48,750 nt of DNA from assembly GCA_013285945.1 (NCBI GenBank), contig JABDGP010000016.1, positions 1 through 48,750 on the forward strand. The letters are read 5' to 3'. The position numbers and the translations under genes were made by a program. Shown here piece by piece: positions 14,636 through 48,580 of this stretch (the first letter of the stretch is position 1; each line of letters begins with the position of its first letter). This DNA comes from Bacteroidota bacterium. GTDB lineage: Bacteria; Bacteroidota; Bacteroidia; Cytophagales; Cyclobacteriaceae. The notes under the pieces were generated by a model, which saw only the letters and a program-made list of their open reading frames with translations, did not search any database and was not told where the DNA came from.

Positions 14636-14700
14636 TAGCACCGGCAGTAACTCGAGATTTTTACAATTCATTGTTCCAATATTGAAACAACTCTCAATTT
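14636..14700 (+). repeat. Left inverted end of the insertion element
   Basis: Contains TAGCACCGGCAGT, CGAGATTTTT, the near-palindrome at 14672-14689 and ACTCTCAATTT. It is homologous by eye to the right end at 16085-16159 (inverted) and to the two units at 28367-28461 and 30736-30831. Confidence 0.7.
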
Positions 14701-14724
14701 AGACGGAAATCGACACATTGCATT

Positions 14725-15978
14725 GTGTTGACCTACAATTCCTATCACTCCGAACTTAAATGTCTCGCGCGCGCGAACCTTCTTGCACAAGAAATCTGTG
14801 CACTAATTCCGCGTTCCAATATCTGGCGTTGGAAGCATGAGCCTGCCGATAAGTACAAATCATTTGACCTGAATTTGAAGGCATCCCAAGATTATGAGCT
14901 GATCCGATCTTTTGCCAACAATACGAAAGCAAAACGGGTTTTCTCTGCATACGTGCGTCTGTGCAAATTCTTCCTTGAGCTCGTACACAACGTTCCGAAA
15001 TTTCACAAATACGTCCATGCCGTGAAATTGCAAGTGGTCAAAACAATTGATCGTGTGAAGAATACAATCGGATTAGTCCGAACACTTCGGGTGTTCAACA
15101 TCTCCGTTTCCACCTATCGCCAATGGAGTATCGAAACCTATACCAGTTGTTTTCATTCTATAATAAACACCTGCAATCGGATTTATCCTACCCAACTCTC
15201 AAGTCTAGAAATCAAACTTTTGAAGGACAAACTCATTGATCCGGTTAACCGGTACTGGCCGATTTCGTCCATTGCATTTGAATCTCTGAAAGACGGATCA
15301 CTCCCCTTGAGTCTGAACACATGGTACAAATACTCCAAGAGGTTGGGCATCGCAAGACCAAGGCCCAACGACCGGCGGAAGAAAAGGGCAGAAGGGATCC
15401 GGGCAGAACGACCGAATCAAATCTGGCATGCCGACATTACACGGTTTGTTACAATCGACAATGTCGCATATTTCATCTACTTAGTCGTCGATAATTTTTC
15501 ACGGAAAATCCTATCGTGGAGAATTTCCGACAAAGTAAGTGCTTTGATCCGGCGCGAGACGATAGGGGAGGCCACGAAAAACTCGAAAAATGAAGAGGAA
15601 CATATTCTGTTGATCACTGACGGCGGCCCAGAAAATTCTTTGAAGGAGTACCTGAGAACAATCGACGTCTCTGTTGTTCATCAAAGAGCAATGATCGACG
15701 TACAGTGCTCAAACTCGTTGATAGAGGCCCACAACAAGGTGATCAAATACAACTATTTGTACAGGATGTCGGTCTCGGATGGAAACCACTTGAAAAAACT
15801 CATCCCATGGATAGTTGACGACTTCAACTCTCGTCCTCACGTTTCACTTGAGGGTCTAACACCAAATGAAAAATATGGGAACCTGACGCTTGATCAAAGC
15901 TCCTTGCGATCTTTGAAAGCAACGGCTTCACAAAAGCGAAAAGAGCACAACTTCAAGAACAGATGCGTGAATTGCTGA
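14725..15978 (+). CDS. DDE (rve-type) transposase
   Basis: A 417-residue single-frame transposase. The N-terminal half is basic and helical, with possible HTH segments near 120-135 (LRVFNISVSTYRQWS). The integrase-like catalytic core runs from about 228: D237 in IWHADITR, D299 in ILLITDGGPEN, and E334 in SNSLIEAHNKVIK, so the acidic triad is complete. The last two acids are 35 residues apart, as in IS3-like enzymes. The C-terminal FNSRPHVSLEGLTPNEKY segment is also typical of that group. There is no upstream orfA and no frameshift window, unlike IS3 elements. The start is GTG 14725. The gene appears intact and could act in trans on the related ends near 28.4 and 30.8 kb. Confidence 0.9.
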   Translation: MLTYNSYHSELKCLARANLLAQEICALIPRSNIWRWKHEPADKYKSFDLNLKASQDYELIRSFANNTKAKRVFSAYVRLCKFFLELVHNVPKFHKYVHAVKLQVVKTIDRVKNTIGLVRTLRVFNISVSTYRQWSIETYTSCFHSIINTCNRIYPTQLSSLEIKLLKDKLIDPVNRYWPISSIAFESLKDGSLPLSLNTWYKYSKRLGIARPRPNDRRKKRAEGIRAERPNQIWHADITRFVTIDNVAYFIYLVVDNFSRKILSWRISDKVSALIRRETIGEATKNSKNEEEHILLITDGGPENSLKEYLRTIDVSVVHQRAMIDVQCSNSLIEAHNKVIKYNYLYRMSVSDGNHLKKLIPWIVDDFNSRPHVSLEGLTPNEKYGNLTLDQSSLRSLKATASQKRKEHNFKNRCVNC

Positions 15979-16084
15979 CAGGTGTTTACTTGTCGCGAGG
16001 TTTTTTGTGTCGGAATAGGAGAGAACCGTCTCGATTTTCTACCGCTGAGGCCATGCTAATCCATAAACTTTTTGATCAGGTAGG

Positions 16085-16159
16085 AATTTTTATAGCTTCG
16101 TACTGTGTTCCAATATTGAAACACTGGATTATTAAAAAGTCGTAGGAGTGCCGGCGCTA
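16085..16159 (-). repeat. Right inverted end of the insertion element
   Basis: Read on the minus strand: TAGCGCCGGCACT, CGACTTTTTAATA, the near-palindrome (16106-16123), then AGTACGAAGCTATAAAAATT. The inner part matches the passenger-element ends closely (AGTATCGAAATTTTAAAAATT at 28421 onward). Confidence 0.7.
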
Positions 16160-22602: not shown

Positions 22603-25600
22603 ATGAAGACGATTTTCTATAGTGGCATTTTAGTGATTGTTTCAACGATGTCGTTGGTAAATGTAGCCAATGCCCAAGGCTCTGTGCCCGACCAGCAGGA
22701 GTTCACGGCGTTGAAAGCACTTTACGATAGTTTGGGTGGAAGCAGTTGGACAACAAAGACGAACTGGCCTGTTGCGGGCAGCTGGCCAAGTAGTGCTACA
22801 GCTGCGCAAATGAGTACATGGTATGGAATTACAGTTACCAATGGAGATGTGACAAGTGTTTCTTTCGCCACCAATAACCTGATAGGAAAAATTCCGTCAG
22901 CTGTTGGCGGACTCACCATGGTGAATACCCTGAGCATCACTGGCAACCCAGGAGTAGCTGGTCACATTCCTTCCGCTCTTGGGAGCATGACGGCATTAAA
23001 GACGATCTATATTTTTGGTTGCAGCCTTACAGGCACGATACCCGCCTCTCTGTTTAGTTTACCACAGTTGGGCGTATTGTGGTTGAACAGTAATAAACTT
23101 ACTGGATCGATACCCAGGGCTATCGGCGACGCCACGGCACTAACGAACCTGAATTTGAGTACCAATCAATTGACTGGGCCACTGCCCAATGAGCTATCCA
23201 ATTGCCATGGGCTGGCAACGTTGAATGTTAGCCTAAACCAACTTAGCACGTTGGAGCCACTAGGGGCGATGCCGGCTCTGAGTGCGTTCAGAATAAACAA
23301 CAATAGCTTTACGGGAGCAATCCCCGTTTGGGTAGGGCAGATGCCTGCGATGCAGGACTTAAGCTTGGGTAATAACAAATTCTCGGGCAATCTCCCCAGT
23401 TCACTAAGTAGCCTACAGAGTCTTACCAATTTTTCGTTTGGCAATAACCAGATCACTGGCCCTCTGCCTGATGCTACTAATTTTAAGAACATGTTGACGT
23501 TTGATGTGAGCAATAATAAAATGTCCGGCACGATTCCGCTGACTTACACGAATTTAAGTAAGTGTACATCCTTTAATATCAATACAAACCAATTCACCGG
23601 TGTATTGCCCGATAATTTATTTGCTTCGTGGACAAAAGTAAACACTATTAATGTATTAGGTAATCATTTCTCAGGATCCTTCCCATCGTCGGTTGGGAGT
23701 TGTACCCTATTAGTAAGTCTATGCGGAACTACAAATTCATTTACCAGTCTCCCTGCTTCTATTTTAAGTCTGTCTGCATTGCGAGCATTGCAATTTGAAA
23801 ACAATCAACTCACCGCCATTCCCAACTTGGCAAACCATCCTAACAAGGCAAACCTTTCAATTACGATCAGGACTAACCACCTTGATTTTTCACAACTGGA
23901 GCCATTGATTGGCAGTGGGCTGCCTGCATTCAGTTACTCGCCACAAACCATTAGCGATGTAACCAGCATTACGTACCAGGCGAATGATACACTGAAAATA
24001 CCTGCACGACCTTTTGGCACTTCAAGTACAATCACCTGGCAAAAGCAACAGGCCAACGGCACTTGGGCGACCATCAACAGCAGCAACAACGACCCCTCGC
24101 AGAAAACCTTCCGCCAAAACAGCGCAGCGATTTCGAATGAAGGCACCTACCAGTGGATCATGACCAACACTATAGTAACTGGACTTAGTAGTCTTAGCAG
24201 CAGTCCGATTACAGTAGCAACGACTACTCAGGTAGCAATGAATAAATGGGCATTTCAATATCAGTATGACACCCGGAGAAGAGTGACGGCCAAGCGCGTG
24301 CCTGGAGCTGACTGGGTATATATGGTATATGACGCAAGGGATAGATTGGTACTTACCCAGGATGGAAATCAACGGCTAAGCAATCAGTGGATATTCACGA
24401 AATATGATGCGCTGAACCGGCCGGTAAGTACGGGCATTTATAGCCCGGGCAGTGCGATCAGTCAGGCAGCCATGCAGGCTAACGTCAACAGCTATTACAA
24501 TTCCATTAGTACTAATGGAGGAAATTTGTATGAGACATACATAGGAACAGGTAATACACATGGCTATGACGACAAATCATTCCCTCCCGTGACAGATGCA
24601 AGCCAGTACCTCACAGTGACATATTATGACAACTATTCATTTTTGAACAATGATAATGAATACGCTTACGTTGCAATCGATGCACCTTCACAGTTAGTAG
24701 GCGGGGTCACTTACAATCAACCAACAGCAAACAACAGCACGGTGACAGGAAAAGTAACCGGCAGCAAGGTAAAAGTACTCGGTGCAGATTTGTACTGGCT
24801 GCAAAGCGTGAATTATTACGATGACAAGTACAGAGTGATACAAACCATTTCTGACCATCAACGAAACGGGCAACAGCGTACAACAAACATATATGACTTT
24901 GTTGGCAAAGTACTTGCAACAAAAACCTCTGACATGAAACGAGTTACTTGGACAGATATGGTGAATGTATCTGTGCTTGGCAATAAATTGGTTGCCAATG
25001 GAGGGGTGTGTTCTAACGCAGGGGCGGTTTCAGTGGAACAAATACCGTCACCCTCCGCACCGAGCACTTTGGGGAATGGCTGGGTAGAAGTAACCGTATC
25101 TGAGATTGACCCCAATTCGAAAAGAGAGATCGGACTTTCGAGTACCGATGCTAATGCAAGCTATACCTCGATCAACTATGGTTGGTTTATCCAAGGTAGT
25201 AGTGCCGCAGTATTTGAAAATGGTAGTCAAAGCACTAGCGTTACCATAGTTCAGGGTGATATACTCCGCGTGGAGCGAGTGGGTATTACGAGTACTAATT
25301 CTGTCGGCACTATTGTGTATAAGAAGAATGGAGTACTCGTGCGTACTTCGACAATTCCTTCGTCCACAATGTTAATGGCCGACAATTCATTTTGCGGCAC
25401 CAATGGCACGTTGCTGAATGTGCGTACTTCGATAGCCACAGTTACTGAAACAATCACTAGAACATTTGATTACGATCATGTTGGACGTCTCGTGCATACT
25501 TGGCACAGCGTGAATGGAGCTGCAGCAATCTTGCTGGCAGCAAATGAGTACAATGAGATAGGGCAAATTGTAACCAAGAAACTGCACAGCACCAATAGCG

Positions 25601-27981
25601 GAAGTACATTCAAACAAAATGTAGACCAACGCTATAACATAAGAGGGTGGCTGACGAATATCAATAATTCTCAACTTGCCAGTGATGGAGGGACAACTAA
25701 TGGTGATAACAATGACCTGTTTGGAATGGACTTGCTTTACGACCAGAGCGACACGGGAATGGGGAACACTAGCCTATACAATGGCAATATAAGTGCTGTC
25801 AAGTGGAGCAACAGTTTGGCACTTAGTTCTGCAAAGAGTAGCGGCTACAAGTATAGTTATGATGCCATGAACCGGATACTTGGAGCTAGCTATCTCACGA
25901 ATAACTCAAGCACATGGACCAATCCGACAAACGCCTTCAGCGAAAGTGGTTACACTTATGACCTGAACGGAAACATTAAACACCTCAAACGCCTGGATGC
26001 AAATGGAAGCCTGCTCGATAGTTTGAACTACAGCTATGGGACTCAGGGCAACCAGTTACAAAGTGTTACCGACGATGGAGGTGATGCCCTCAATGGCTTT
26101 GTAGATGGTAACATAGGCAACACTGACTACAGCTACGACCCAGCAGGCAACATGATAGCCGACAAGAATAAGAATATTACCTCCATCACCTACAACTATT
26201 TGAACCTGCCACAGCAGGTGACTAAAGGAACCGGCGAGAATATAAAGTATACCTACGATGCAAGTGGAAGGAAACTAAAACAACAGGTGTACAGTGCTAG
26301 CAACGCACTGACCAAAACCACCGACTACGATGGAGAACTGATCTACCAAGGCACGGCACTGGGCGACACACTTAAATTCATTAACCATGAGGAAGGCAGA
26401 GTAGTAATGACAGGAGCAACACCTGAATATCAATATCATTTGAAGGATCATCTTGGAAATGTGAGAACCACGTTCACGACTCAAAGAACCGTGGACAACC
26501 CTATTGCAACCTTTGAGGTAGCTAATTACAATACAGAGCAAAGCCTGTTCTTGCGATATGATGACGCACGAGTAATTAACTCAACCTTGTTTGATCATAC
26601 CTATTATCATCAAACCCCACCAGTAGCAGGCGCATTCAGTGAGCGACTCAGCGGCTCGGCAAACGAAAAGACAGGGATAGCCAGATCAATTAGTGTAATG
26701 CGGGGAGATACCATCAACCTGACCGTGTACGCCAAATACGTAGACCCGACAAACAGCAACAACACGGCAGCGCTCACACAATTCCTTGCACAGGTAGTGG
26801 CAGGGACGGCCAGCGCGGGGACAGTAATAGACGGAGCGAACTATTCAGTGAATGGTATCACACCATTTCCATACACCGGCTTAGCAGGCGAAGGCCGGAG
26901 CACTGGCACTGGGCCAAAGGCGTACTTGAATTATCTTGTCTTTGATCGTAATTTCGTATTCATGAACGGAGGCTATGTACAAGTAAGCACGTCAGCAAAA
27001 GAAGACGGTACCAATGTACCACATCAACAACTATCTGCACAAGTTGTAATCAACCAACCGGGATATGTTTACACCTACTTATCAAACGAAGCTGCCTCAC
27101 CGATAGAAGTCTACTTCGATGACTTTACGGTGCAGCAGATAAAAAGCCCTGTTATCGCCACAAATGACTACTACCCCTTCGGAGCTGTGACACAATCTTA
27201 TCAACGGGAAAATTCAGTGCCGAATAATTATTTGTACCAGCACAAAGAATACCAGAGCGATCTTGGGTTAAACTTATACGACTTCAATGCAAGACAATAT
27301 GATCCGTGGGCTGTACTTACAACAACACATGACCCACATGCAGAGAAGTACTACAGTATGAGCCCTTACAGCTGGGCAGGCGGAAATCCCATGAAGTACC
27401 TCGATCCAACAGGTAAGGATATCATTATTTTGTACCAAGATGATAAGGGAAAGACTCAACAATACAATTATAAAAATGGTAGCACTTATAAAGGAAGCAA
27501 TCAATTCATTAAGAATTTTTATTCAGCAGTTGGTCTGTTGAACAGTAAAGGCGCTGGCGGAATAATTAGTGCCCTAGAAAAGAATTCTCAAAAAGTATTT
27601 ATTCAACAAAAATCTGGAATCTCAAATCAAAGTAAGAATACTATTAATTGGGATCCACACTTAGGGTTAGTGACTAAAAATGCTACGTTATCGCCGACTT
27701 CAGTTCTAAACCATGAGGCTGATCATGAACTTCAATATGTTACAAACCATGAGCAGTGGAAGAAAGATGCTACTACACCAGATAAGGATTATGATACTAA
27801 AGAAGAGAGAAGGGTGATAACTGGATCAGAACAAGACACTGCTAAGAAACTTGGAGAAGTAGATAAAGGTAAAGTAACAAGGACAGACCACAATGGAACG
27901 TTATACCCTACTTTAGGCCCAACTTCCACGCAAGGAAAAGATGAAATTACTGTAGAATCCAAAAAAGGAAATGATGAATAA
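22603..27981 (+). CDS. LRR-RHS polymorphic toxin with C-terminal HExxH (zinc metallopeptidase-like) domain
   Basis: A 1792-residue exported protein. Signal peptide 1-24 (ending NAQG). Residues about 35-450 hold plant-type leucine-rich repeats (TGTIPASLFSLPQLGVLWL, then SGNLPSSLSSLQSLTNFSF). YD repeats run from about 550 (YQYDTRRRV, KYDALNRPVSTG, YDHVGRLVHTW). The RHS core lies at about 1275-1606 (YHLKDHLGNVRTTF, GLNLYDFNARQYDP, NPMKYLDPTGKD); the DPTG is where RHS tips are normally released. The tip (about 1607-1792) has LNHEADHELQY: H1704-E1705-x-x-H1708, a zincin motif, with acidic KEERRVITGSEQ downstream as a possible third ligand. This resembles M91/NleD-type effector peptidases. The gene overlaps by 11 bp the start of a lipoprotein gene, the usual toxin-immunity arrangement. 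Confidence 0.9.
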   Translation: MKTIFYSGILVIVSTMSLVNVANAQGSVPDQQEFTALKALYDSLGGSSWTTKTNWPVAGSWPSSATAAQMSTWYGITVTNGDVTSVSFATNNLIGKIPSAVGGLTMVNTLSITGNPGVAGHIPSALGSMTALKTIYIFGCSLTGTIPASLFSLPQLGVLWLNSNKLTGSIPRAIGDATALTNLNLSTNQLTGPLPNELSNCHGLATLNVSLNQLSTLEPLGAMPALSAFRINNNSFTGAIPVWVGQMPAMQDLSLGNNKFSGNLPSSLSSLQSLTNFSFGNNQITGPLPDATNFKNMLTFDVSNNKMSGTIPLTYTNLSKCTSFNINTNQFTGVLPDNLFASWTKVNTINVLGNHFSGSFPSSVGSCTLLVSLCGTTNSFTSLPASILSLSALRALQFENNQLTAIPNLANHPNKANLSITIRTNHLDFSQLEPLIGSGLPAFSYSPQTISDVTSITYQANDTLKIPARPFGTSSTITWQKQQANGTWATINSSNNDPSQKTFRQNSAAISNEGTYQWIMTNTIVTGLSSLSSSPITVATTTQVAMNKWAFQYQYDTRRRVTAKRVPGADWVYMVYDARDRLVLTQDGNQRLSNQWIFTKYDALNRPVSTGIYSPGSAISQAAMQANVNSYYNSISTNGGNLYETYIGTGNTHGYDDKSFPPVTDASQYLTVTYYDNYSFLNNDNEYAYVAIDAPSQLVGGVTYNQPTANNSTVTGKVTGSKVKVLGADLYWLQSVNYYDDKYRVIQTISDHQRNGQQRTTNIYDFVGKVLATKTSDMKRVTWTDMVNVSVLGNKLVANGGVCSNAGAVSVEQIPSPSAPSTLGNGWVEVTVSEIDPNSKREIGLSSTDANASYTSINYGWFIQGSSAAVFENGSQSTSVTIVQGDILRVERVGITSTNSVGTIVYKKNGVLVRTSTIPSSTMLMADNSFCGTNGTLLNVRTSIATVTETITRTFDYDHVGRLVHTWHSVNGAAAILLAANEYNEIGQIVTKKLHSTNSGSTFKQNVDQRYNIRGWLTNINNSQLASDGGTTNGDNNDLFGMDLLYDQSDTGMGNTSLYNGNISAVKWSNSLALSSAKSSGYKYSYDAMNRILGASYLTNNSSTWTNPTNAFSESGYTYDLNGNIKHLKRLDANGSLLDSLNYSYGTQGNQLQSVTDDGGDALNGFVDGNIGNTDYSYDPAGNMIADKNKNITSITYNYLNLPQQVTKGTGENIKYTYDASGRKLKQQVYSASNALTKTTDYDGELIYQGTALGDTLKFINHEEGRVVMTGATPEYQYHLKDHLGNVRTTFTTQRTVDNPIATFEVANYNTEQSLFLRYDDARVINSTLFDHTYYHQTPPVAGAFSERLSGSANEKTGIARSISVMRGDTINLTVYAKYVDPTNSNNTAALTQFLAQVVAGTASAGTVIDGANYSVNGITPFPYTGLAGEGRSTGTGPKAYLNYLVFDRNFVFMNGGYVQVSTSAKEDGTNVPHQQLSAQVVINQPGYVYTYLSNEAASPIEVYFDDFTVQQIKSPVIATNDYYPFGAVTQSYQRENSVPNNYLYQHKEYQSDLGLNLYDFNARQYDPWAVLTTTHDPHAEKYYSMSPYSWAGGNPMKYLDPTGKDIIILYQDDKGKTQQYNYKNGSTYKGSNQFIKNFYSAVGLLNSKGAGGIISALEKNSQKVFIQQKSGISNQSKNTINWDPHLGLVTKNATLSPTSVLNHEADHELQYVTNHEQWKKDATTPDKDYDTKEERRVITGSEQDTAKKLGEVDKGKVTRTDHNGTLYPTLGPTSTQGKDEITVESKKGNDE

Positions 27982-28369
27982 AATATATTTTTTAGCCATA
28001 CTCTTTTTATTTTCCCTTTGTTCTCAGAGGAGATCATCTTTGGAAATAAAAATTCAATCGGTTAATAAAGATTTGGAATCACCCATTCGGATCGGGTGTG
28101 GGGATTTTTCAAATATTTTTAAGGATGAGATCAAAGCAAGAACGATCAATGACAAAGAACAAATTGAAGTGTTCAATGAGGCTCTTAAAAAACTTGATAA
28201 GGATAGAGATAGCATGAATGTGGACGTCAGGGCAAAAATTTTTATAAGGGACAATGACCACGTTGATACGCTTTGTGCCAGCAGGTTCTTCATAATTTAC
28301 AATGACATTACCTACAAGATGTCAAATGAATTAGCTAGTCAATTGTGGTCAGGATACCCTGAAGAATAG
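27971..28369 (+). CDS. Lipoprotein, predicted immunity protein for the LRR-RHS toxin
   Basis: A 132-residue protein. The signal region MMNKIYFLAILFLFSLC ends in a lipobox-like FSLC (Cys17). The mature part is a compact charged domain (FKDEIKARTINDKEQIEVFNEAL, FIRDNDHVDTLCASRFFIIYND). No family recognised. Two adjacent ATGs (27971 and 27974) lie inside the end of the toxin gene, so translation is coupled. A lipid anchor would place it in the periplasm, which fits neutralising a toxin that enters from outside. Its TAG stop forms the first three bases of the inverted end of the following repeat unit, so the original 3' end may have been altered. Immunity is inferred from position; the sequence itself shows no homology. 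Confidence 0.7.
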   Translation: MMNKIYFLAILFLFSLCSQRRSSLEIKIQSVNKDLESPIRIGCGDFSNIFKDEIKARTINDKEQIEVFNEALKKLDKDRDSMNVDVRAKIFIRDNDHVDTLCASRFFIIYNDITYKMSNELASQLWSGYPEE

Positions 28370-28461
28370 CTACGGCAGTTCCATGAGTTTTTTTATACCT
28401 CAACATTCCATTGATGGAACAAGTATCGAAATTTTAAAAATTGACATTGGATTGACAACGA
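28367..28461 (+). repeat. Left inverted unit of the passenger element
   Basis: TAGCTACGGCAGTT, then a T7 tract, the palindrome TTCCATTGATGGAA (28406-28419), AGTATCGAAATTTTAAAAATT and GGATTGACAACGA. It begins in the stop codon of the immunity gene. It pairs with the inverted unit at 30736-30831. Confidence 0.72.
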
Positions 28462-28556
28462 GGCAAGGCTGATTTGGCTTGAGATTTTGGTTGACCCTAA
28501 TCAGTTTTGGTCTGGAATATTTAGCAGTCTAATTAACAATAAAATCAATCAACAAT

Positions 28557-28946
28557 ATGGAGGACCTAAAGAACCTTCAAAGAATAGTGATCAGTAGTCT
28601 TTTGTTAATAATGCTTACAACCTGCGGGCATAAGAATGGCCACAGCAATTCCGTGTATATTGATATATACGGAAGATGCAAAGAGCAAATTACGGTTAAA
28701 TTAGACGACGATATAATTTTTGATAAGAAGATGAAAGCTGAGAAGCTCTTGGAAGTAACACGGGGTCCACTCATCTTGAAAAAAGAGAAAGTTAAAATAT
28801 ATTATCGCATAGATGATAAAGACACCTCATTCACGTTTGTTCTAAAACAAAATAATTACTTAAGCATCGGATATTCGGAATTCAGGAAGGAATTCCAGTT
28901 TGGAATACGCGATTCTCTGCATTTTTTTAAATCAAGAATAGACTGA
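28557..28946 (+). CDS. Putative lipoprotein of unknown function
   Basis: A 129-residue protein. A hydrophobic stretch (IVISSLLLIMLTTC) ends in a lipobox-like LTTC (Cys23), with ten extra residues before the core signal. The mature domain is short and charged, with beta-strand spacing (SVYIDIYGRCKEQITVKLDDDIIFD, VKIYYRIDDKD). No family recognised. It is the first gene inside the segment bounded by the inverted repeats, 187 bp after the immunity gene stop. It could be a second or orphan immunity protein from an older toxin cassette, or cargo unrelated to RHS. Its small size and lipoprotein nature resemble the neighbour, but no sequence similarity is evident. The start could also be the later ATG at the hydrophobic core. 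Confidence 0.6.
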   Translation: MEDLKNLQRIVISSLLLIMLTTCGHKNGHSNSVYIDIYGRCKEQITVKLDDDIIFDKKMKAEKLLEVTRGPLILKKEKVKIYYRIDDKDTSFTFVLKQNNYLSIGYSEFRKEFQFGIRDSLHFFKSRID

Positions 28947-29116
28947 TTAGCTAACAGCGATAGTCAATCAGGCCACTAACAAAAAATCTGCGTTTCTAGC
29001 TTAACTCCATGCGATTTCCAGAAATTAGTTTTTGGATTATTTCAACTTCCGACTTGTGGTGTTGTGATATTACCGATTAACTTTAGTTGGATAATATTTT
29101 CATCGACCCGACCTGA

Positions 29117-30637
29117 ATGCGTAACATAATTACAGTATTTTTGATCACTTCATACTTAGCGGTCGACGCACAATTGCCCTTTCGGCTAAGCAAAGAACAA
29201 TCTCTAGCTTCAAACTCAGAAGAATCAGTTTCATCAAGCGAGTACGAAATTCAAAACGATTCCTTGTTGTATAGTCATATAAATGGTTCAGTTCTTAGTG
29301 ACATCGTACTGTTTAATCCCAAATTGTCACGGTTGTTGAATTTTAAGAATTGCACTTATTTTCTCCCTCTGAAATTGATTGTGACGCAGTGTTATTTTAA
29401 GGACTATTCCAATTTCAAGTTGACTACCGACTGCAATGGGTATAAGCCAAACTTGAATCTGCTAAATGGATTCGGTATCGTGAATTCAAGGTTCACCTCT
29501 GAGCTAGATATCTCATATCTTACGTGTAATGGTCCTTCACAATTGATTGGCAACCGAGCAGGAAATATCAACCTCTCTGGTGACAATTTTACATACCTCT
29601 CGATCGAAAGCTGTACCCTGGACCGTTGGATCAAATTGGTAAGAACTAATGCGAGTGAATTCAGATGTATAAGTAATAAATTTAATGAAGACTCCTTTCT
29701 AAGCCTCCGTAATTCAACGATTACTGAGGATCTTCAACTGGTGGGGAATTTAGTTCCGAAAGTCTTCTTTGATGATTGTCAGTTTTCGGGAACCTTAAGT
29801 GTAATATCCTGGACGACGCCGACTACGAAGATTGATCACACTGACATATTTATCTCTAACTCAACTATCAATAGCAATTGTAGCGTTGCAATAAGCGGTC
29901 CTAACTATTCCTCGAAACTGATTTTCGAGAGTTGTACATTTGGTCCCTCTGCCAGTCTTTTCAATCTTAAAGTTGACACGATTGTCTTTAAGAATTGCAA
30001 CAATATTCCTCACCCGCTCTTCCTGACCTCTGATACATCAAAGACTGAAATACGCATCGAATTAATCAATTCCAATGTGAACAACATAAGATTTGATTAC
30101 ACAGACAGATTCAAATTGTTTTTTGACAAGAATGTATCAGAGGAAACAAAGAACAATACTTATCAAAGCCTGTTTGCTAAATACAAGGCGGAGGGTAAGC
30201 CTCAGAATTTGGAAAAAATTGACATTGAATATAAGAGATACTTATACAAGTCAAATTGGACTAGTTGGCCGATCTGGCTAATGGACTATTTGTGGTGGCG
30301 ATACGGTTACTCCAAATGGCTGGTTATTGCCTGGTCATTCTTATTTATCGGCATTTTCTTCTTTTACAATTACAAAAATTGGGAGGGAATGAGAAAGATT
30401 TATGGTGTATTTGACAAGGAAGATTTGTCATTGCTAGGCGTTGGTCAAAACGCAATCCGACTAAGAAAAAAAATTATCTACGTCCTGCTCTTCACATCAT
30501 TCATTTTCTTTTCCATTCGAGTCGATTTTGATAAGCTTAAATACGCTAATAACAAATACCTAATCCTTTTTTTTACTCAATATATAGTTGGATTAATTTG
30601 TCTGTTTTTCTTAGCAAACGCTATCTTCAAATTATGA
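29117..30637 (+). CDS. Beta-helix-like exported domain with three C-terminal TM helices, unknown function
   Basis: A 506-residue protein with a signal peptide (MRNIITVFLITSYLAVDA). Residues about 60-330 have short repeating strands with the rhythm of a right-handed beta helix or pentapeptide-like solenoid (FKNCTYFLPLKL, CTLDRWIKLVRTNASEFRCISN, SFLSLRNSTITEDLQLVGN, FISNSTINSNCSVAISG), many with Cys/Asn at turns. A charged helical linker (335-380) leads to TM helices at about 395-415, 453-471 and 483-504. A charged loop between the first two (NWEGMRKIYGVFDKEDLSLL) would be cytoplasmic. A TAACTTTA sequence about 45 bp upstream is one base off the -7 consensus. It lies within the repeat-bounded segment, so it may be cargo. 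The layout suggests a periplasmic sensor or binding domain held by a membrane anchor (inference). Confidence 0.75.
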   Translation: MRNIITVFLITSYLAVDAQLPFRLSKEQSLASNSEESVSSSEYEIQNDSLLYSHINGSVLSDIVLFNPKLSRLLNFKNCTYFLPLKLIVTQCYFKDYSNFKLTTDCNGYKPNLNLLNGFGIVNSRFTSELDISYLTCNGPSQLIGNRAGNINLSGDNFTYLSIESCTLDRWIKLVRTNASEFRCISNKFNEDSFLSLRNSTITEDLQLVGNLVPKVFFDDCQFSGTLSVISWTTPTTKIDHTDIFISNSTINSNCSVAISGPNYSSKLIFESCTFGPSASLFNLKVDTIVFKNCNNIPHPLFLTSDTSKTEIRIELINSNVNNIRFDYTDRFKLFFDKNVSEETKNNTYQSLFAKYKAEGKPQNLEKIDIEYKRYLYKSNWTSWPIWLMDYLWWRYGYSKWLVIAWSFLFIGIFFFYNYKNWEGMRKIYGVFDKEDLSLLGVGQNAIRLRKKIIYVLLFTSFIFFSIRVDFDKLKYANNKYLILFFTQYIVGLICLFFLANAIFKL

Positions 30638-30735
30638 ATGCGGATTCGAAAGGTTGAGTGGTTAATGACTAATTCGCAGCCCAATAACTCACTTAAAAGA
30701 ACTGGACCATCAGCATTTACTGCCGACCGAGTTAA

Positions 30736-30831
30736 TCGTTGCCAATCCAATTCATTTTTTTAATTTCGATACTCGTTCCATTAATGGAACATCGAAGTAT
30801 AAAAAACTCGTAGAACTGCCGGCTGAACTAG
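30736..30831 (-). repeat. Right inverted unit of the passenger element
   Basis: Read on the minus strand: CAGCCGGCAGTTCTACGAG, T6, ATACTTCGAT, the perfect 16-bp palindrome GTTCCATTAATGGAAC (30775-30790), GAGTATCGAAATT, and TTGGATTGGCAACGA. It lies just beyond the stop of the convergent small membrane protein gene. Confidence 0.72.
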
Positions 30832-30841
30832 TTTAAAATCT

Positions 30842-31198
30842 TCACCAATGGTTCAAGTATCTACTTGTTGTGACCCCAGAAAAAATAAGTAAGGCTAAAG
30901 AACCCAAGAATAAGAGTGCAGCTATTAATCCGTAAATTCTTCTTGTTGACAATGAGGACTTGTTGTAACCATTTATAATTTCTAAGTAGCGTCCAGTCTT
31001 TACAAAATACCTTGATGTCAAAAAACCATTCGCCATCCCTAAGATTACTACTAATGCAAAATACACCTTGGCATTAATTGCGGGTAGCCCAAGGACCACA
31101 GTTAGCAGAAAATAAAGGGACACCGAGATGAAAAAAATTGTAGTGGACACCAGGAAACTCGCTCGTTCCATAACAGTACCATCACTCTTTGAAATCAC
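30842..31198 (-). CDS. Small membrane protein, three to four TM segments
   Basis: A 118-residue integral membrane protein with hydrophobic segments at about 14-35, 44-64 and 88-108. Family not recognised. The frame starts at GTG 31198 (MISKSDGTVMERASF); ATG 31171 is an alternative and would leave a nine-residue shorter N-terminus. Charges (KTGRYLEIINGYNKSS, STRR) lie in the last loop. A perfect inverted repeat (GTCCCAACCA/TGGTTGGGAC) lies 34 bp upstream and could be an operator or an mRNA hairpin. The stop is about 10 bp from the outer edge of the passenger-element end. It is a single-gene unit, with a hairpin-rich spacer behind it. Confidence 0.62.
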   Translation of the reverse strand: MISKSDGTVMERASFLVSTTIFFISVSLYFLLTVVLGLPAINAKVYFALVVILGMANGFLTSRYFVKTGRYLEIINGYNKSSLSTRRIYGLIAALLFLGSLALLIFSGVTTSRYLNHW

Positions 31199-31231
31199 AT
31201 TTTTAATGAGCCCACTGGCACATATTTAATG

Positions 31232-31257
31232 GTCCCAACCACAAACCTGGTTGGGAC
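31232..31257. repeat. Perfect 10-bp inverted repeat upstream of the small membrane protein gene
   Basis: GTCCCAACCA, loop CAAACC, TGGTTGGGAC: ten matched pairs. It lies 34 bp upstream of the GTG start at 31198. It has no T-run on either side, so it is more likely an operator or an mRNA leader structure than a terminator. Confidence 0.6.
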
Positions 31258-31273
31258 AATTAACAATGTACAT

Positions 31274-31305
31274 CCGCACTGTTATATATAGAGTGCGGCT
31301 TTTCT
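31274..31305 (+). terminator. Terminator-like hairpin (plus-strand orientation)
   Basis: CCGCACT pairs with AGTGCGG across an 11-nt AT-rich loop, followed by CTTTTCT. The T-rich tail is on the plus strand, yet no plus-strand gene precedes it for 640 bp. It may stop read-through from the passenger segment or end an unannotated plus-strand transcript. Confidence 0.5.
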
Positions 31306-31576
31306 AAGTTTTTGATATTACCTGGGCTGTTTTTCACCCGATTGAGTCGTCAAGGTTGACAGACAATTAAAAATGTTCTTTTTCGCCCCTTTCCTTCAAT
31401 TTTAAAAAATTAAAATGTGCCTGCTGTTTCGCAGAACGCAGCATTGTTTTTGAGTTTTTGACTGATTTCATCCCGAGTTTATAAAATCAGGATTTCCCGA
31501 AAATCCCGAATATCATCCCGAATAAACGGGATAGAATTGAGTTCATTATAGCTGTAAAACTACTTTGATACAGCTT
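31306..31576 (-). other. Hairpin- and repeat-rich spacer
   Basis: No gene. The sequence TCCCGA occurs four times within 51 bp (31471, 31495, 31504 and 31516). The last copy forms the hairpin ATCCCG-AATAAA-CGGGAT at 31515-31532, about 45 bp past the stop of the minus-strand gene at 31577. It could act as that gene's transcription end or mRNA stabiliser; no T-run follows. Confidence 0.45.
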
Positions 31577-42610: not shown

Positions 42611-45319
42611 CTACTCCACCTTCAAACTTTTCACCGGATTCGTTGTGGCTGATTGAACCGCCTGAACCGAAATCGTGATCAGTGCAATAACCACGGCTGA
42701 CGCTCCAGCTAAAGCAAATATCCACCACGATAACTCAATCTTGTAGGCAAATCCTTGGAGCCACTGGTACATGAAGTACCCCGCGATTGGTGCTGCGATT
42801 AAGAACGAGAGCAGAACCAACGCGAGGAATTCTTTCGAAAGTAAATTGACAATATTTGTTACAGTCGCGCCCAGTACTTTTCGGATACCTATTTCCTTAG
42901 TCCGTTGTTCGGCTGCAAACATTACAAGACCTAATAGACCCAGGCACGAGATGGCAATCCCAAGCACCGCAAAAATATTGGTGAGTTTGGTGATCACCTG
43001 TTCCGTGCGATAAAGTTTGTCGTACTCCTGATCCATAAATTGAAAAGCAAAAGGATAGTTGGGATTAATCTCTTTACAAACCGTTTCCATGCTTGCAAGT
43101 GCCTCCTTGGTTTTGCCAGGCTCAAAGCTCACGATAATTACACCAAAATATTCATACTCCTTTACATCGAGGATCAATGGTTTGATCGGTTCTCGCAGGG
43201 AGTTGGTGTGATAATCCTTAAGGATGCCGACGATGTGTCCTTTCTTGGCCCAGGCCGACACCCATTTTCCGATAGGATTTTTTATGCCCATTTGCTTTAC
43301 CGCTTCTTCATTAACCATGAACGCATCGGCAGAATCGGTCGCGAACGATTTTGAAAAGTCGCGTCCTTCGGCCACTTTCAAATTCATGATTTTTATGAAA
43401 TCAAATCCCACAGAGGCTGGTTTAAACCCGACTGACGCATCCTTCGGTTTACCCTCCCAATTGATCGCGTCGTCTCCGTTTAATGTATTTTTTAGCCCGT
43501 CATTTTCATCAACTACAAAACCCATGGCATGAGGAGCTTCCGTACTGCGATCAACCATCACAATTCCAGGCATTTTCATGGCACGTTCCTTAAACAAGGA
43601 ATATTTCGGGTTAAGCTCGCCTTCAAGTTGGATCAGGATGCGATTGTCGCGGTCATACCCAAGGTTTGTATTTTGGACGAAGCTTGTTTGATTGGAAACG
43701 ACAATAGTAGCAATGAGCAACACAATAGACAACGCAAATTGAAATACGACCAACCCCTTGCGAAACCAGATTGCAGAATTAGTGAAACGCAATGTTCCTT
43801 TTAGTATACGAGCAGGTTTGAGTGAGGAAAGATAAAGTGCGGGGTAACTTCCAGCAATCAATCCGGTAAACAATGCCATGCCGATCAATGCAGCCCAATA
43901 GGAGGGTACCGATATGGGGGAGGCGATTTGCTTGCTGGCAAGGGCATTGAAGAAAGGAAGGAAAATTTGAATCAGTGCAATGGAAACGAAAAGCGACAAA
44001 AAAGACAGAAGCAACGATTCGCCAAAGAATTGACTCACCAAGCTGAATCGCGACGAGCCGACTACTTTACGCACACCCACTTCTTTTGCCCGCTTGACGG
44101 ATCGTGCAGTGGCCAGGTTCATGAAATTGATGCAGGCAATGATTAAAATAAAAACTGCGACTCCCGTAAAAATCCGAACGTAGATCATGCGCCCTTCTTG
44201 TGGTTTTCCATTTAAGAAAGTGGAATTCAAATATTTTTCCCCGTAAGATTTGAGGCCAACGCTAATTTTTTCAGGATCGTTTTTGTCAAGCCTCGACTGC
44301 AGAAAATGATTCAGTTTAATTTCCACTTGGACGATATCGGCGTTCTCCTCCAACTCAAGTGTGGTGAGGATGATCGGTGAGGCCTGTTCCAATTGCTTGA
44401 TATGCGAATCCCAGTTGATAAGAAAATCAAATGTCAGCGAGCTATGCGAAGTGATGTTTTCAAAGACAGCATTTACGACAAAATCGAACTTATTTTCGTA
44501 GCGAATACTTTTACCGATGGCCTCCTTGGGCGAGCCAAAAAAGAATATTGCCATTTTCCGTGAGATGGAAATGCTGCTTATATCGTGCAGGGCGGCGTTG
44601 GCATCTCCAGCAATGATTGGATAACTGAACATCGTAAAGAAGTCTTTTCCTGCCCGCGAACCGTCAAACTTTTGAATTTTTTCGCCTACCTGAAAAGTTT
44701 CCGAATGTCCCCACGGCAGTTCATAACCAGTGGCATACCAATTTATTTTCTTGATTTCAGGGACAGCCTGTTTGAAGTCGTCAAGGTTGACCCCAGTGAT
44801 TTCGCCCTTTTTTTTTGCGTTGAGATTTTGGTAGATCAGCACAGATGGGGTACTATAGACTCCTGTGGTTTGCCCATTCCTGGCCACTGTTTGATAGATA
44901 TTGTACAGTTGACTTCCGTTGGCATGAAAATTATCAACAGATTTCTCATCACCTACCCACAGAAAAATAAACAAGCAACAGGTCATTCCAAGGGCAAGCC
45001 CAACAATGTTGATTGCAGAGAATGTCTTTTGTCGAACCACATTGCGAAAGGCAACAGTGGCGTAATGCGTGAACATGCTCATAGTTGAAGATTTAGTTGA
45101 TAGATATTTCTTTCTTCTTATTGCAAATGGTTTTATAAATCCAATTACATTTCTGATATATTCAAGCTTGGCTCTTGCAATGCCAACTTGTTTCACTTTA
45201 AAATCAAATTCTTCTTCCAGATCCCCTTGTACTTCTTCCACCAAATGTGGTGCGCAATACCAGCGGAGCAAGCGCGTGGCCCAGCGAGGTGGAGATGGAT
45301 TGGAGTTGGTTGGGTTCAT
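42611..45319 (-). CDS. FtsX-type ABC permease with WYC prefix domain (unit C, second permease)
   Basis: A 902-residue permease starting MNPTNSNPSPPRWATRLLRWYC, with the prefix-domain tag VEEVQGDLEEEF. The first TM is at about 100-120 (INIVGLALGMTCCLFIFLWV). Two periplasmic domains alternate with two FtsX blocks (CINFMNLATARSVKRAKEVGV and RKVVGSSR near 400; RTKEIGIRKVLGATVTN near 810). The C-terminus LKVE is the usual family ending. Its start lies 6 bp after the stop of the other permease gene, so both are made from one message. The two unit C proteins are closer to each other than to those of units A and B in prefix and FtsX motifs, suggesting a local duplication or a heteromeric pair. No ATPase gene is near. 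Confidence 0.93.
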   Translation of the reverse strand: MNPTNSNPSPPRWATRLLRWYCAPHLVEEVQGDLEEEFDFKVKQVGIARAKLEYIRNVIGFIKPFAIRRKKYLSTKSSTMSMFTHYATVAFRNVVRQKTFSAINIVGLALGMTCCLFIFLWVGDEKSVDNFHANGSQLYNIYQTVARNGQTTGVYSTPSVLIYQNLNAKKKGEITGVNLDDFKQAVPEIKKINWYATGYELPWGHSETFQVGEKIQKFDGSRAGKDFFTMFSYPIIAGDANAALHDISSISISRKMAIFFFGSPKEAIGKSIRYENKFDFVVNAVFENITSHSSLTFDFLINWDSHIKQLEQASPIILTTLELEENADIVQVEIKLNHFLQSRLDKNDPEKISVGLKSYGEKYLNSTFLNGKPQEGRMIYVRIFTGVAVFILIIACINFMNLATARSVKRAKEVGVRKVVGSSRFSLVSQFFGESLLLSFLSLFVSIALIQIFLPFFNALASKQIASPISVPSYWAALIGMALFTGLIAGSYPALYLSSLKPARILKGTLRFTNSAIWFRKGLVVFQFALSIVLLIATIVVSNQTSFVQNTNLGYDRDNRILIQLEGELNPKYSLFKERAMKMPGIVMVDRSTEAPHAMGFVVDENDGLKNTLNGDDAINWEGKPKDASVGFKPASVGFDFIKIMNLKVAEGRDFSKSFATDSADAFMVNEEAVKQMGIKNPIGKWVSAWAKKGHIVGILKDYHTNSLREPIKPLILDVKEYEYFGVIIVSFEPGKTKEALASMETVCKEINPNYPFAFQFMDQEYDKLYRTEQVITKLTNIFAVLGIAISCLGLLGLVMFAAEQRTKEIGIRKVLGATVTNIVNLLSKEFLALVLLSFLIAAPIAGYFMYQWLQGFAYKIELSWWIFALAGASAVVIALITISVQAVQSATTNPVKSLKVE

Positions 45320-45325
45320 GCTAAA

Positions 45326-47977
45326 TCATTCGCTCCGTAAACTGTTTATTGGGTTTGCCATCGCTGCTTTGATTGCCTGAAAACTTACTGTAACGATGGT
45401 AATCGCCAGCGCACCCATTCCCGACAAGGCGAAAACCCACCAGGAGATTTCGGTATGATATTGATAAGTCTTCAACCAATTGGTTAAGAAATAATAGGAG
45501 ATAGGGACGGCAATAAAGCAAGAGAGTAAAACCAACACCACAAAATCTTTCGACAACATCCGCCAGAGGGTTGCCACAGAGGCTCCGAGGACTTTTCGGA
45601 TACCGATTTCCTTTGTCTTTTGTTCGGCAATGAATGATGATAACCCAAACAAACCAAGACATGAAATAAATATTGCAAGTATTGCAAACAATGAAGCTAA
45701 CCTCCCTAATCGTTGCTCTGCCTTGAACTTATTTCCATATTCTTCATCGACAAAACTATAAACAAACGGAGCTGATGGCACGAGTTTGTTTTGTATCGAT
45801 TCTATTTTTGATAATGCCTCTTTTGTACTTATCGAATGATTTAGCTTGATCAGCATTTGCCACAAATTACTTGCATCTTTTTCTAACCAATAGAAACCAG
45901 GTTGCACCGATTCATATGGGCTGGTTGCAATCACGTCATCTACCACCCCAATGATTAGCCGGTGTTGATTGTTGTTCGATTCCTGCGTAATAAATTCTCC
46001 AATTGGATTTTCTAGGCCCATGTATTTTGCAGCCGACTTATTAATAATCACTACGTCTGCGTCTGTACCAAATTCCCTTGAAAAATCCCGGCCTTGTAGC
46101 ACTTTCCATTGGATCGTTTTGCCGTAATCTTCGTTGGTCCACGTAACAGTAAAGCTGGATTCTGCCTCCGGATTTTTACCTTTCCATGTAAACCCTCCCC
46201 AGTTATCCCATATCGCTGTGACAGGGCTGCTGGAAAACCCAACATTGCTCGCCAAACCGCTAGCCAATAGTTCATTCTGAATTACCAGTTTGCTCTTGTT
46301 GAAATCGGGGTCCTTTATCGGGATTCGGATCAGTCCTTTGCGGTCATATCCGATGGGCCGATTTTGTGCGTATTGAATTTGCTGATAAACAATAATTGTT
46401 CCGATCATTAAAACCACAGAAACACTGACTTGCGTAATGACCAAGATCCTACGCGGCAGTGCAGCAAACCTTCCCAAAGGAGATGACCCTTTCAGGACTT
46501 TCACCGGCTGGAACGATGAAAGATAAAAAGCCGGGTAGAGCCCTGACAAAAATGACGTTATTGTTAAGAAGGCAAAGCACAATAACCAAAAATAAATATT
46601 ATCGAAAGGTAATTGGATGCTTTTGTCCGCCAATTCGTTGAAGGGTGAAAGTGACATTGAAACCAATACAAGCGCAATGACCAATGCAAGGAAAACCACC
46701 AGAAAAGATTCACTCAAAAACTGATTGACTAACTGCAATTTCACAGAGCCAATCGCCTTTCTGATGCCGACTTCTTTGGCTCTTTTTTCGCTTCGCGCAG
46801 TACTTAGGTTCATGAAGTTGATGCATGCCAGCAACAAGACAAACAATCCGACTATCGCAAACAACCAAACATAAGTTACCCGCCCGGCAATAGGATAACC
46901 ATCCTTAAATTCTGAATACAAGTACCAATCCTTCATCGGATGCAACCAAACATTGGTTTTATATTTCTTTGCACCTTCCTTAAAACCATCCGGAGAATCC
47001 TTCAAATACAAATCCCGCATGGCCTCGCTCGCCCGTTCAACGCTGACATTGTCCTTAGTTTGTACATAAATCCAGTGTGAAGTTTGGCCCCAATTATTTT
47101 CATTGGCTTTGATGCCTTCGTTGTTGGCTCTCAGGTTCTCAAAATTTGCAAAAAACTGAATGTTGCCGAAGACAGAATTTTTGGCAATGTCAGCATACAC
47201 GCCCCTGACCACTGCATCAATTTTGCTGTCCAATTTTACGGTTTGGTTGATAGGGTCCTTTTCCCCAAAGATTGCTTTTGCCGTTGATTCGGAAATAATG
47301 ATGGCTTGTTGATCGCTGAGGCTTTCCTTGCTCCCCCTCAGCATGTTCAATGAAAACATGTCGGTCATCCCGTTTTCGATAAATTGACCAACCTTGATAA
47401 AACTACTTTCGCCAACCCTAAGTGTATAATCAGAGTATGACCGAACCAACACTATATGCTTAAACAAATGCCCATATTTTTCAGTCAAGACTTTAGCCAT
47501 CGGCTGCGGCAGCCATTCCGTGCTGATTGTTTTTTGTTCCAACGGCTCGGTGAAACGTCTGTAAACCTGTGCGATATTTCTGTAATTGGTATGGCTATGA
47601 TTGTAGCTTACTTCATCATAAACCCACAATCCAATGAGCATAACCACAGCCATACCAACGGCCAACCCGCCAATATTGATCAGGCTATACATTTTATTTC
47701 TGCTTAAATTCCTCCACCCGATTTTGAAATAACTTTTGAACATGGCGTTGTTGTTTATGGTTGACTTCCTTCTCTTTATCGCAAACGGTTTTATAAATCC
47801 GATAACATTTCTGACGTAGTCGAGTCGCGCTTTTGTTAGGCCGACTTGTTTTATTTTAAAATCAAATTCTTCTTCTAGGTCACCCTGTACTTCTTCAATC
47901 AATTGTGGAGCACAATACCATTGTAGTAGTTTCGTGGCCCAGCGTGGTGGAGATGGTTTAGGAATGAAAGGTTTCAT
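45326..47977 (-). CDS. FtsX-type ABC permease with WYC prefix domain (unit C, first permease)
   Basis: An 883-residue permease. The start at ATG 47977 (MKPFIPKPSPPRWATKLLQWYC) overlaps the PadR stop by ATGA, the arrangement seen in units A and B. The longer frame to 48016 lies inside the PadR gene and is rejected. Prefix tag IEEVQGDLEEEF; first TM at about 102-125 (INIGGLAVGMAVVMLIGLWV); first FtsX block CINFMNLSTARSEKRAKEVGI, then RKAIGSVKLQL; second block RTKEIGIRKVLGAS-type motif (here KTKEIGIRKVLGASV) near 795. Same topology as its neighbours. The two permeases of this operon may form a heterodimer with an ATPase supplied elsewhere (inference). Confidence 0.93.
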   Translation of the reverse strand: MKPFIPKPSPPRWATKLLQWYCAPQLIEEVQGDLEEEFDFKIKQVGLTKARLDYVRNVIGFIKPFAIKRRKSTINNNAMFKSYFKIGWRNLSRNKMYSLINIGGLAVGMAVVMLIGLWVYDEVSYNHSHTNYRNIAQVYRRFTEPLEQKTISTEWLPQPMAKVLTEKYGHLFKHIVLVRSYSDYTLRVGESSFIKVGQFIENGMTDMFSLNMLRGSKESLSDQQAIIISESTAKAIFGEKDPINQTVKLDSKIDAVVRGVYADIAKNSVFGNIQFFANFENLRANNEGIKANENNWGQTSHWIYVQTKDNVSVERASEAMRDLYLKDSPDGFKEGAKKYKTNVWLHPMKDWYLYSEFKDGYPIAGRVTYVWLFAIVGLFVLLLACINFMNLSTARSEKRAKEVGIRKAIGSVKLQLVNQFLSESFLVVFLALVIALVLVSMSLSPFNELADKSIQLPFDNIYFWLLCFAFLTITSFLSGLYPAFYLSSFQPVKVLKGSSPLGRFAALPRRILVITQVSVSVVLMIGTIIVYQQIQYAQNRPIGYDRKGLIRIPIKDPDFNKSKLVIQNELLASGLASNVGFSSSPVTAIWDNWGGFTWKGKNPEAESSFTVTWTNEDYGKTIQWKVLQGRDFSREFGTDADVVIINKSAAKYMGLENPIGEFITQESNNNQHRLIIGVVDDVIATSPYESVQPGFYWLEKDASNLWQMLIKLNHSISTKEALSKIESIQNKLVPSAPFVYSFVDEEYGNKFKAEQRLGRLASLFAILAIFISCLGLFGLSSFIAEQKTKEIGIRKVLGASVATLWRMLSKDFVVLVLLSCFIAVPISYYFLTNWLKTYQYHTEISWWVFALSGMGALAITIVTVSFQAIKAAMANPINSLRSE

Positions 47978-48309: not shown

Positions 48310-48580
48310 TTGGGCTTCTATTAAATCCATCTTTGCTGACCAAATATCCGGCCAAGATGAAAACGAAGATTTTGAAAGAATTTGGAAGAATTCTGGTTTC
48401 GAGCTGCTGTGCAAACGTTCGAGTTCGTAACAGAAGTGTTCAATACTGGGAACTCGCTTATTTGCGTCTCGAACGTTGAGCCAGTTGCAAATCATCAAAT
48501 CCGTCTAAATGCCACCTACGAAAAATTAAATTGGTCAAATTAGTAACCTTGCAATCTTTATAAGGTTGCCAACTTTTATC

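What the first reader, a model, noticed from the sequence alone, without database searches (positions are those of the whole stretch)
28367..30831. Transposase-less segment bounded by the same kind of inverted ends as the nearby DDE insertion element
The ends at 28367-28461 and 30736-30831 are inverted, about five-sixths identical by eye over roughly 88 bp, and share their plan with the ends of the transposase element at 14636-16159: outer (C)CGGCAGT, CGAG-T-tract-ATA, central TTCCA-N4-TGRAA palindrome, inner AGTA(T)CGAA tract. Inside are two genes (a lipoprotein and a beta-helix-like TM protein) and no transposase. This is what a passenger element mobilised in trans would look like. It would be a way to move envelope genes beside polymorphic toxin loci. 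Shared ends are seen in sequence; mobility is inference.
Basis: partly seen in the sequence, partly recalled or inferred. Interest (0 to 1): 0.78.

Follow-up and report, generated by a model that had tools for sequence, protein, structure and literature searches.

The report
Two genes inside transposon-like ends
Next to a bacterial toxin gene, two envelope genes sit between mirror-image DNA ends that match the ends of a nearby jumping gene but contain no jumping enzyme, so they are probably a passenger that a neighbouring element could move, a kind of element already known elsewhere.

Summary
The ends at 28373-28461 and 30736-30822 are inverted and 84% identical over 89 bp. A model trained on ends of the transposase element and its relatives, without the passenger's ends, finds four sites at E<=0.05 in the 2.9-Mb draft genome: the two transposase-element ends and these two. 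The block holds a lipoprotein-like gene and a gene of a pentapeptide-repeat/membrane family, with no detectable transposase remnant. The nearby transposase (417 aa) is a DDE rve enzyme matching IS3 and IS481 models below both cut-offs; relatives occur in other Bacteroidota, and many share the right-end plan (outer GCA..TCC.ACGA, AT-rich stretch, palindrome).

Best reading: a non-autonomous passenger element of the known MIC/transporter-IS kind, beside a toxin-immunity pair.

Against it: no second passenger copy, no empty site and no convincing target duplication were found. In genus relatives the ends occur singly, usually at gene 3' ends, most with transposase sequence inward (6 of 9 tested) and some with none detectable. 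Two independent solo ends around resident genes therefore remain a serious rival. Mobility is inferred, not shown. New member of a known kind; moderate interest.

The parts
28373..28461 (+). left end of the passenger block (pL): outer CGGCAGT, T-tract, palindrome TTCCATTGATGGAA at 28406-28419, inner AGTATCGAAA tract
   Evidence: 84% identical to the right end inverted; R3 match 35.3 bits, E 2.9e-4 genome-wide
30736..30822 (-). right end of the passenger block (pR), palindrome TTCCATTAATGGAA at 30776-30789
   Evidence: R3 match 65.4 bits, E 7.6e-11 genome-wide
28557..28946 (+). cargo gene 1: 129-aa lipoprotein-like protein (lipobox-like LLLIMLTTCG by eye; no family match above a curated cut-off)
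   Evidence: translation; Pfam/NCBIfam
29117..30637 (+). cargo gene 2: 506-aa protein with signal-peptide-like start (by eye), strand-rich middle and helical C-terminus; relatives carry Pentapeptide_3 repeats, this one has no Pfam match itself
   Evidence: matches in 11 other of 390 family genomes; Pentapeptide_3 in 4 of 5 relatives scanned at E<=0.1, 3 of them above the cut-off; model mean pLDDT 64.6
14641..14712 (+). left end of the transposase element (tL)
   Evidence: alignments; tL-tR local score 41 against shuffle maximum 25
14725..15978 (+). DDE (rve) transposase, 417 aa, candidate triad D237-D299-E334
   Evidence: Pfam rve E 3.7e-9; NCBIfam IS3 97.3 bits (cut-off 160) and IS481 54.9 bits (cut-off 224); D237 and E334 invariant in 15 aligned proteins
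16083..16154 (-). right end of the transposase element (tR), palindrome TTTCAATATTGGAA read inward
   Evidence: similar plan in relatives
22603..27981 (+). neighbour: Rhs polymorphic toxin with LRR N-terminal part and Peptidase_M91-like C-terminal domain
27971..28369 (+). neighbour: putative immunity gene by position; its stop codon ends 4 bp outside the left end
   Evidence: position; Imm30 similarity only E 0.054, below cut-off
30842..31198 (-). neighbour: 118-aa membrane-like protein, possible orphan immunity gene; its stop lies 20 bp outside the right end
   Evidence: weak Bfi1 immunity match E 0.0019, 18.2 bits against cut-off 100; E 0.03 to the gene beside a G004 end

Best explanation
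The block 28373-30822 is a non-autonomous passenger element. It has a pair of ends of the same family as the nearby rve-type insertion element (14641-16154) and encloses two envelope genes instead of a transposase. The DDE transposase would bind the end signature (outer CGGCAnT, CGA, AT-rich stretch, palindromic GTTNCA..TGNAAC box), pair the two ends and move the block in trans, as proposed for mobile insertion cassettes and other transposase-less IS derivatives. It probably landed in the gap between a toxin-immunity pair (ending 28369) and a convergent immunity-like gene (30842-31198). Shown: the related paired ends, no detectable transposase inside, the full-length transposase with DDE residues nearby. 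Inferred: binding, pairing, past or present mobility.
For: Paired inverted ends, 84% over 89 bp. Both recovered by a model that never saw them; only 4 hits at E<=0.05 in 2.93 Mb. Among the six ends of alignment A3, pL and pR are closest to each other (53 of 64 positions; at most 45 of 64 or 43 of 61 to any other), and their local similarity stops at one inner point, as expected for the two ends of one element. A search with pL finds only itself and pR in the genome, 2.4 kb apart and facing outward. Weak support that paired ends belong to the family: tL lies 84 bp before the ORF; short matches to the right outer end lie at -71 in L060 (14 of 18, p 0.003) and -68 in G453 (11 of 16, p 0.023) (see against). 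Cargo gene 2 has relatives in 11 other of 390 family genomes; none of the 11 loci fetched has an R3 match at E<=1 in its about 1.5-kb flanks, so enclosure by ends is particular to this copy.
Against: Only one copy known: no second pair among 14 end matches in 6 of 60 genus genomes, nor among the R2 matches in 8 of 14 transposase-bearing genomes from other groups (opposite-strand hits there are the palindromes themselves). One weak opposite-strand match, L122 1181-1217 (18.5 bits), lies inside another gene and shares only 11 bp with the right end, so it looks like chance. All are drafts or samples; the own genome is 78% complete. Target repeats: for the transposase element nothing over 4 bp, and that one lies inside the ends; for the passenger nothing over 3 bp (a GCT abuts it, about what the offsets tried would give by chance). 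Empty site: sought only through one flanking protein, whose genus relatives are 44-51% identical, and no conserved flank was found in the 11 relative loci fetched. pL fits the family model only modestly (35.3 bits). The left-end test is weak: 17 copies, uncorrected p; the window's own element gets p 0.32, one other low p (L061, 0.033) points to -210, and 12 more have p over 0.1.
Confidence: 0.54

Rival explanations
1. Two solo ends: pL and pR are the surviving right ends of two separate, decayed copies of the element, each dropped at the 3' end of an immunity-like gene in the toxin island. They happen to face outward around resident genes, so no passenger element exists.
For: In the genus, ends outside this genome are single. 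All four G004 copies keep the right end; two are cut inside the ORF and the other two show no left end above shuffles. 8 of 9 genus ends tested outside this genome face a gene 3' end. Ends without detectable transposase exist: G069, G005 C402, G003 C438, a weak G065 match, and L117 and L119 in other groups. pL sits 4 bp and pR 20 bp from gene stops.
Against: pL and pR are closest to each other among the six ends compared and lose similarity at the same inner point; no transposase remnant was found inward of either; pL finds only itself and pR in the genome, 2.4 kb apart and facing outward.
Confidence: 0.28
2. Derivative of one autonomous element of a sister subfamily whose own transposase gene was replaced by, or lost beside, the two genes; the ends serve a transposase now absent from the genome.
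For: pL and pR are more like each other (53 of 64) than like tL or tR (39-44 of 61-64); no other full-length transposase of this family was found in the own genome and none with better-matching ends among the relatives.
Against: No transposase remnant inside. It differs from the leading reading only in origin and in which enzyme acts.
Confidence: 0.12
3. The palindromes are transcription terminators or binding sites between convergent genes, unrelated to transposition.
For: Ends lie at gene 3' ends and carry T-tracts.
Against: The terminator scan of 27500-31500 finds none at the ends. As single-stranded DNA only pR tends to fold better than shuffles (z -1.82, 7 of 200 as good); the other three ends do not. 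The shared signature is 89 bp long with an outer CGGCA, and in relatives it lies downstream of the transposase gene.
Confidence: 0.06

Closest known systems
Mobile insertion cassettes (MICs), e.g. MIC231 of Bacillus cereus
   Same: Transposase-less segment with IS ends around unrelated genes, with a related transposase in the same genome. [quoted passage not shown] MIC231 was seen only as a reference title; that MICs carry cargo genes between IS ends is recalled.
   Different: Other IS group; ends about 89 bp with an internal palindrome; cargo is envelope genes beside a polymorphic toxin; mobilisation and copy spread not shown here.
Transporter IS (IS copies with passenger genes)
   Same: Passenger genes unrelated to transposition in an IS (term in PMC3129680 passages).
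   Different: This block has no transposase.
IS3 and IS481 families
   Same: The nearby transposase has the rve DDE domain and matches both family models.
   Different: Below both curated cut-offs (97.3 against 160; 54.9 against 224 bits); single ORF; ends with an internal palindrome.
IS1202 family (ISAjo2 and relatives)
   Same: About 1.5 kb element with one large DDE transposase (441-457 aa there, 417 here) and an extra binding site near each end (abstract of PMC10132070).
   Different: There the outer ends are 5'-TGT..ACA-3' (abstract); here they are CCGGCA..TGCCGG. dif-like sites were not sought here.

Membership tests
Mobile insertion cassette / non-autonomous passenger element | no transposase gene between the ends | tested here: met
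   no transposase family match in either cargo gene; 15 transposase proteins against the interior give only E >= 0.065
Mobile insertion cassette / non-autonomous passenger element | both ends related to the ends of a transposase-bearing IS in the same genome | tested here: met
   R3, built without the passenger ends, finds both (E 7.6e-11 and 2.9e-4) and otherwise only tL and tR in the genome at E<=0.05
Mobile insertion cassette / non-autonomous passenger element | passenger gene(s) unrelated to transposition | tested here: met
   lipoprotein-like gene and member of a pentapeptide-repeat/membrane family
Mobile insertion cassette / non-autonomous passenger element | target site duplication | tested here: inconclusive
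   passenger: nothing over 3 bp; transposase element: one 4-bp match, inside the ends; a 2-4 bp duplication cannot be told from chance
Mobile insertion cassette / non-autonomous passenger element | more than one location, or an empty site | tested here: not met
   no second pair among 14 end matches in 60 genus genomes searched; empty site sought through one flanking protein only. Weak evidence, since genomes are drafts
Mobile insertion cassette / non-autonomous passenger element | mobilisation in trans | not testable with these tools
   needs a transposition assay
IS3 family | transposase at or above the NCBIfam IS3 cut-off | tested here: not met
   97.3 bits, cut-off 160
IS481 family | transposase at or above the NCBIfam IS481 cut-off | tested here: not met
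   54.9 bits, cut-off 224
IS1202 family | outer ends 5'-TGT..ACA-3' | tested here: not met
   ends CCGGCAGT..AGTGCCGG in the sequence; feature from the abstract of PMC10132070

The most novel reading that the evidence does not exclude
The whole 16-kb stretch from tL (14641) to pR (30822) is one compound element: a transposase unit at one side, a transposase-less unit at the other, with the complete Rhs toxin operon and immunity gene between them. The end signature would then mark module boundaries through which toxin-immunity modules and their orphan immunity genes are exchanged in Bacteroidota. This would fit the two passenger ends and the four G004 ends lying 4-166 bp from the stops of immunity-like genes. 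A 5-bp direct repeat ACTAG lies just outside tL and pR, but at unequal offsets (3 and 5 bp) and within reach of chance for the number of offsets tried.
Probability: 0.1. Interest if true: 0.65.

Novelty: new member of a known kind. Interest (0 to 1): 0.42.

Why it matters
How toxin tips, immunity genes and neighbouring envelope genes are shuffled in Bacteroidota is, as far as I recall, mostly put down to recombination. A transposase-driven route with recognisable ends would make individual moves traceable and testable. The end signature and the transposase family described here give a search handle, and the window holds what looks like a matched enzyme and substrate pair for an assay.

Tried and rejected
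Target-repeat search around both elements and around tL..pR: nothing convincing. Interior search for transposase remnants: none. Left end of four genus copies (two G004, one G005, one G003) by alignment to six end types: none above shuffles. Inverted-repeat search in 700-bp flanks of 20 relatives' transposase genes: no long pair (2 more too short to test). Loose search for further copies of the palindrome in 27 loci gave second hits in L054, L056, L066, L074 and L075, most chance-like; only those of L056 (R1, E 0.011) and L075 were borne out as ends, the latter in the same orientation as the first right end. Viral contigs: 14 stretches matched a pattern, none confirmed. Plasmids: best match 28% identity (Leptospira); 1310 records in all, none at 60% identity or more, of which I saw 15 rows; cargo gene 2 none. 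R1 in 390 order genomes found only the own genome at E<=0.001, with strict filters. Integron-like single-site cassette idea: dropped, because the passenger ends are inverted and the enzyme is rve. Terminator idea: not supported. Rhs association: Rhs core matched in 6 of 27 family loci by tblastn; beside three of four G004 copies by tblastn and beside the fourth by a 168-bp stretch 98% identical to the Rhs-side gene of C18; controls 1 of 21 but with shorter flanks, so no rate is claimed.
Full report
1. The observation. The two ends flank 28373-30822 in inverted orientation and are 84% identical over 89 bases (E 1.0e-18 in the whole genome; pair I2 shows the central 53 bp). The transposase element is 14641-16154. 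Local alignment scores of pR to tR and tL (53, 42) exceed the maxima of 500 single-base shuffles each (26, 24); pL exceeds them only narrowly (29 and 28 against 26 and 27).

2. Independent test of shared ends. Model R3 was built from eight ends: tL, tR, two G004, three G005 and one G003 right ends, with no passenger end. In 60 genus genomes it gives 14 matches at E<=0.05 in 6 genomes. In the own genome (2.93 Mb, 130 contigs, 78% complete) there are four: tR 71.1 bits, pR 65.4, tL 63.9, pL 35.3 (E 2.9e-4). With filters off, the next site in the window has 15.7 bits. R1, which included the passenger ends, gives the same four at E<=0.5. So the kinship of the ends is not an artefact of eye or of training.

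3. The enzyme. ORF 14725-15978 encodes 417 aa with an rve domain (E 3.7e-9). It matches the NCBIfam IS3 and IS481 models below their cut-offs. In an alignment of 15 family proteins D237 and E334 are invariant; D299, 35 positions before E334, starts a DGG-type motif that a simple pattern found in 8 of the 15. Relatives: 66% identity in G004, about 52% in G005, 38% in G003. A pattern-limited scan of one genome per 84,980 species found 27 loci; by their record titles all belong to Bacteroidota as far as I can tell (group assignment of the names recalled). In 390 family genomes 9 have a match at E<=1e-25, several of them fragments.

4. The end plan in the family. Downstream of the transposase in many relatives there is a palindrome (TGTTGCAATATTGCAACA, TGTTTCAATGTTGGAACA, GTTCCTTATAAGGAAC and the like), then an AT-rich stretch, then a TCGTGGGA..TGC-like outer end. 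This is the order seen in the window. Chryseobacterium-type loci have a different palindrome, and a few loci show none of this kind. The left end is much less clear: no long inverted pair was seen around 20 transposase genes. Short matches to the right outer end lie 71 bp before the ORF in L060 (14 of 18, p 0.003) and 68 bp before it in G453 (11 of 16, p 0.023), out of 17 copies tested without correction; the window's own copy reaches only 11 of 18 (p 0.32) in that test, and L061's best match lies at -210 (p 0.033). tL lies 84 bp before the ORF and is supported by its longer alignment to tR (score 41 against 25). In G004 all four copies keep the right end; two are cut inside the ORF, and the other two show no recognisable left end.

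5. Where ends lie. For 13 genus ends tested, the nearest outer ORF of at least 80 aa shows its 3' end in 10; for 16 Bacteroidales-type ends, 8 show 3', 4 show 5', 2 lie inside an ORF and 2 have no gene. The counts include copies of one lineage and are not independent. All four G004 ends lie 83-166 bp from the stop of a putative immunity gene (by position) next to an Rhs-type gene. In this window pL lies 4 bp from the stop of the putative immunity gene of the Rhs toxin (22603-27981; Rhs core, Peptidase_M91-like end), and pR 20 bp from the stop of a small membrane-like protein gene with a weak immunity match. Of the 9 genus ends outside this genome, 6 have transposase sequence inward and 3 have none detectable (L081, L083, L084).

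6. The cargo. Gene 28557-28946 encodes a 129-aa lipoprotein-like protein without a family match above cut-off. Gene 29117-30637 encodes 506 aa. It has no match at E<=0.001 in the 57 other genomes of a set of 58 relatives, but 11 other of 390 family genomes carry members at E<=1e-5, mostly matching its C-terminal half. Of five relatives scanned, four match Pentapeptide_3 at E <= 0.1, three of them above the cut-off. None of 11 loci with relatives has an R3 match at E<=1.

7. Explanations. A passenger element mobilised in trans fits the pairing, the closeness of pL to pR, their common inner limit and the missing transposase. Two solo ends around resident genes fit the habit of relatives. I prefer the first because a search with pL finds only itself and pR in the genome, 2.4 kb apart and facing outward, because the two are closest to each other, and because neither continues into detectable transposase remnants. 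I cannot exclude the second. Target duplications do not decide: nothing over 3 bp for the passenger and one 4-bp match inside the ends for the transposase element. Empty sites were sought only through one flanking protein, without success.

8. Known kinds. Passages of PMC3129680 name MICs, MITEs, solo IRs and transporter IS, and say that some transposase-less objects can be activated by a cognate transposase. IS1202 elements, another DDE group, have TGT..ACA ends (abstract and outline of PMC10132070), unlike these. A review of polymorphic toxins (PMC3482391; term search in the held 300,000 characters) mentions transposase once, in another sense, and none of 'transposon', 'insertion sequence' or 'mobile element'. 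The listed papers (15, 15, 12 and 8 rows) showed none that by title or abstract start describes this family; that is not proof of absence.

9. Verdict. Observation confirmed; interpretation partly supported; most likely a new member of a known kind (passenger element) belonging to an IS group that fails the IS3 and IS481 cut-offs. Mobility remains to be shown.

Noticed in passing
L085, L086, L087, L088 (G004): Four of four transposase copies keep the 3' end and differ on the 5' side (two cut inside the ORF, two without a recognisable left end); one (C3) has the outer 12 bp of its end repeated in tandem.
   Followed up: partly
L078 6350-6790; L072 6560-6660: In L078 about 215 bp at the transposase 3' side, including the right end, is repeated in tandem; in L072 a second copy of the outer right end lies about 85 bp further (by eye), as if another copy had inserted next to an existing end.
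   Followed up: partly
L075 / L115 (JAOZUK010000070): Several fragments of this transposase lie within one contig, with two right ends in the same orientation 2.7 kb apart.
   Followed up: partly
L082 194-211: The outer bases of an element end seem to supply the last codons and the stop of a neighbouring ORF (reading ..APAVPR*, by eye).
   Followed up: no
L112 6888-7193 and L119 3081-3431: Element ends lie inside small ORFs; by eye one looks like an HTH-regulator tail and the other precedes a RelE-like ORF. No family search was run on them.
   Followed up: no
window 42611-48498: Large minus-strand ORFs that share a 215-bp direct repeat at 77% identity (45108-45322 and 47766-47980), probably paralogues.
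   Followed up: no
G000 C81:5002-5331 and C16:49668-49754: Further fragments of the same transposase in the own genome, the first about 97% identical in DNA over 395 bp (90% in protein) but cut on both sides.
   Followed up: partly
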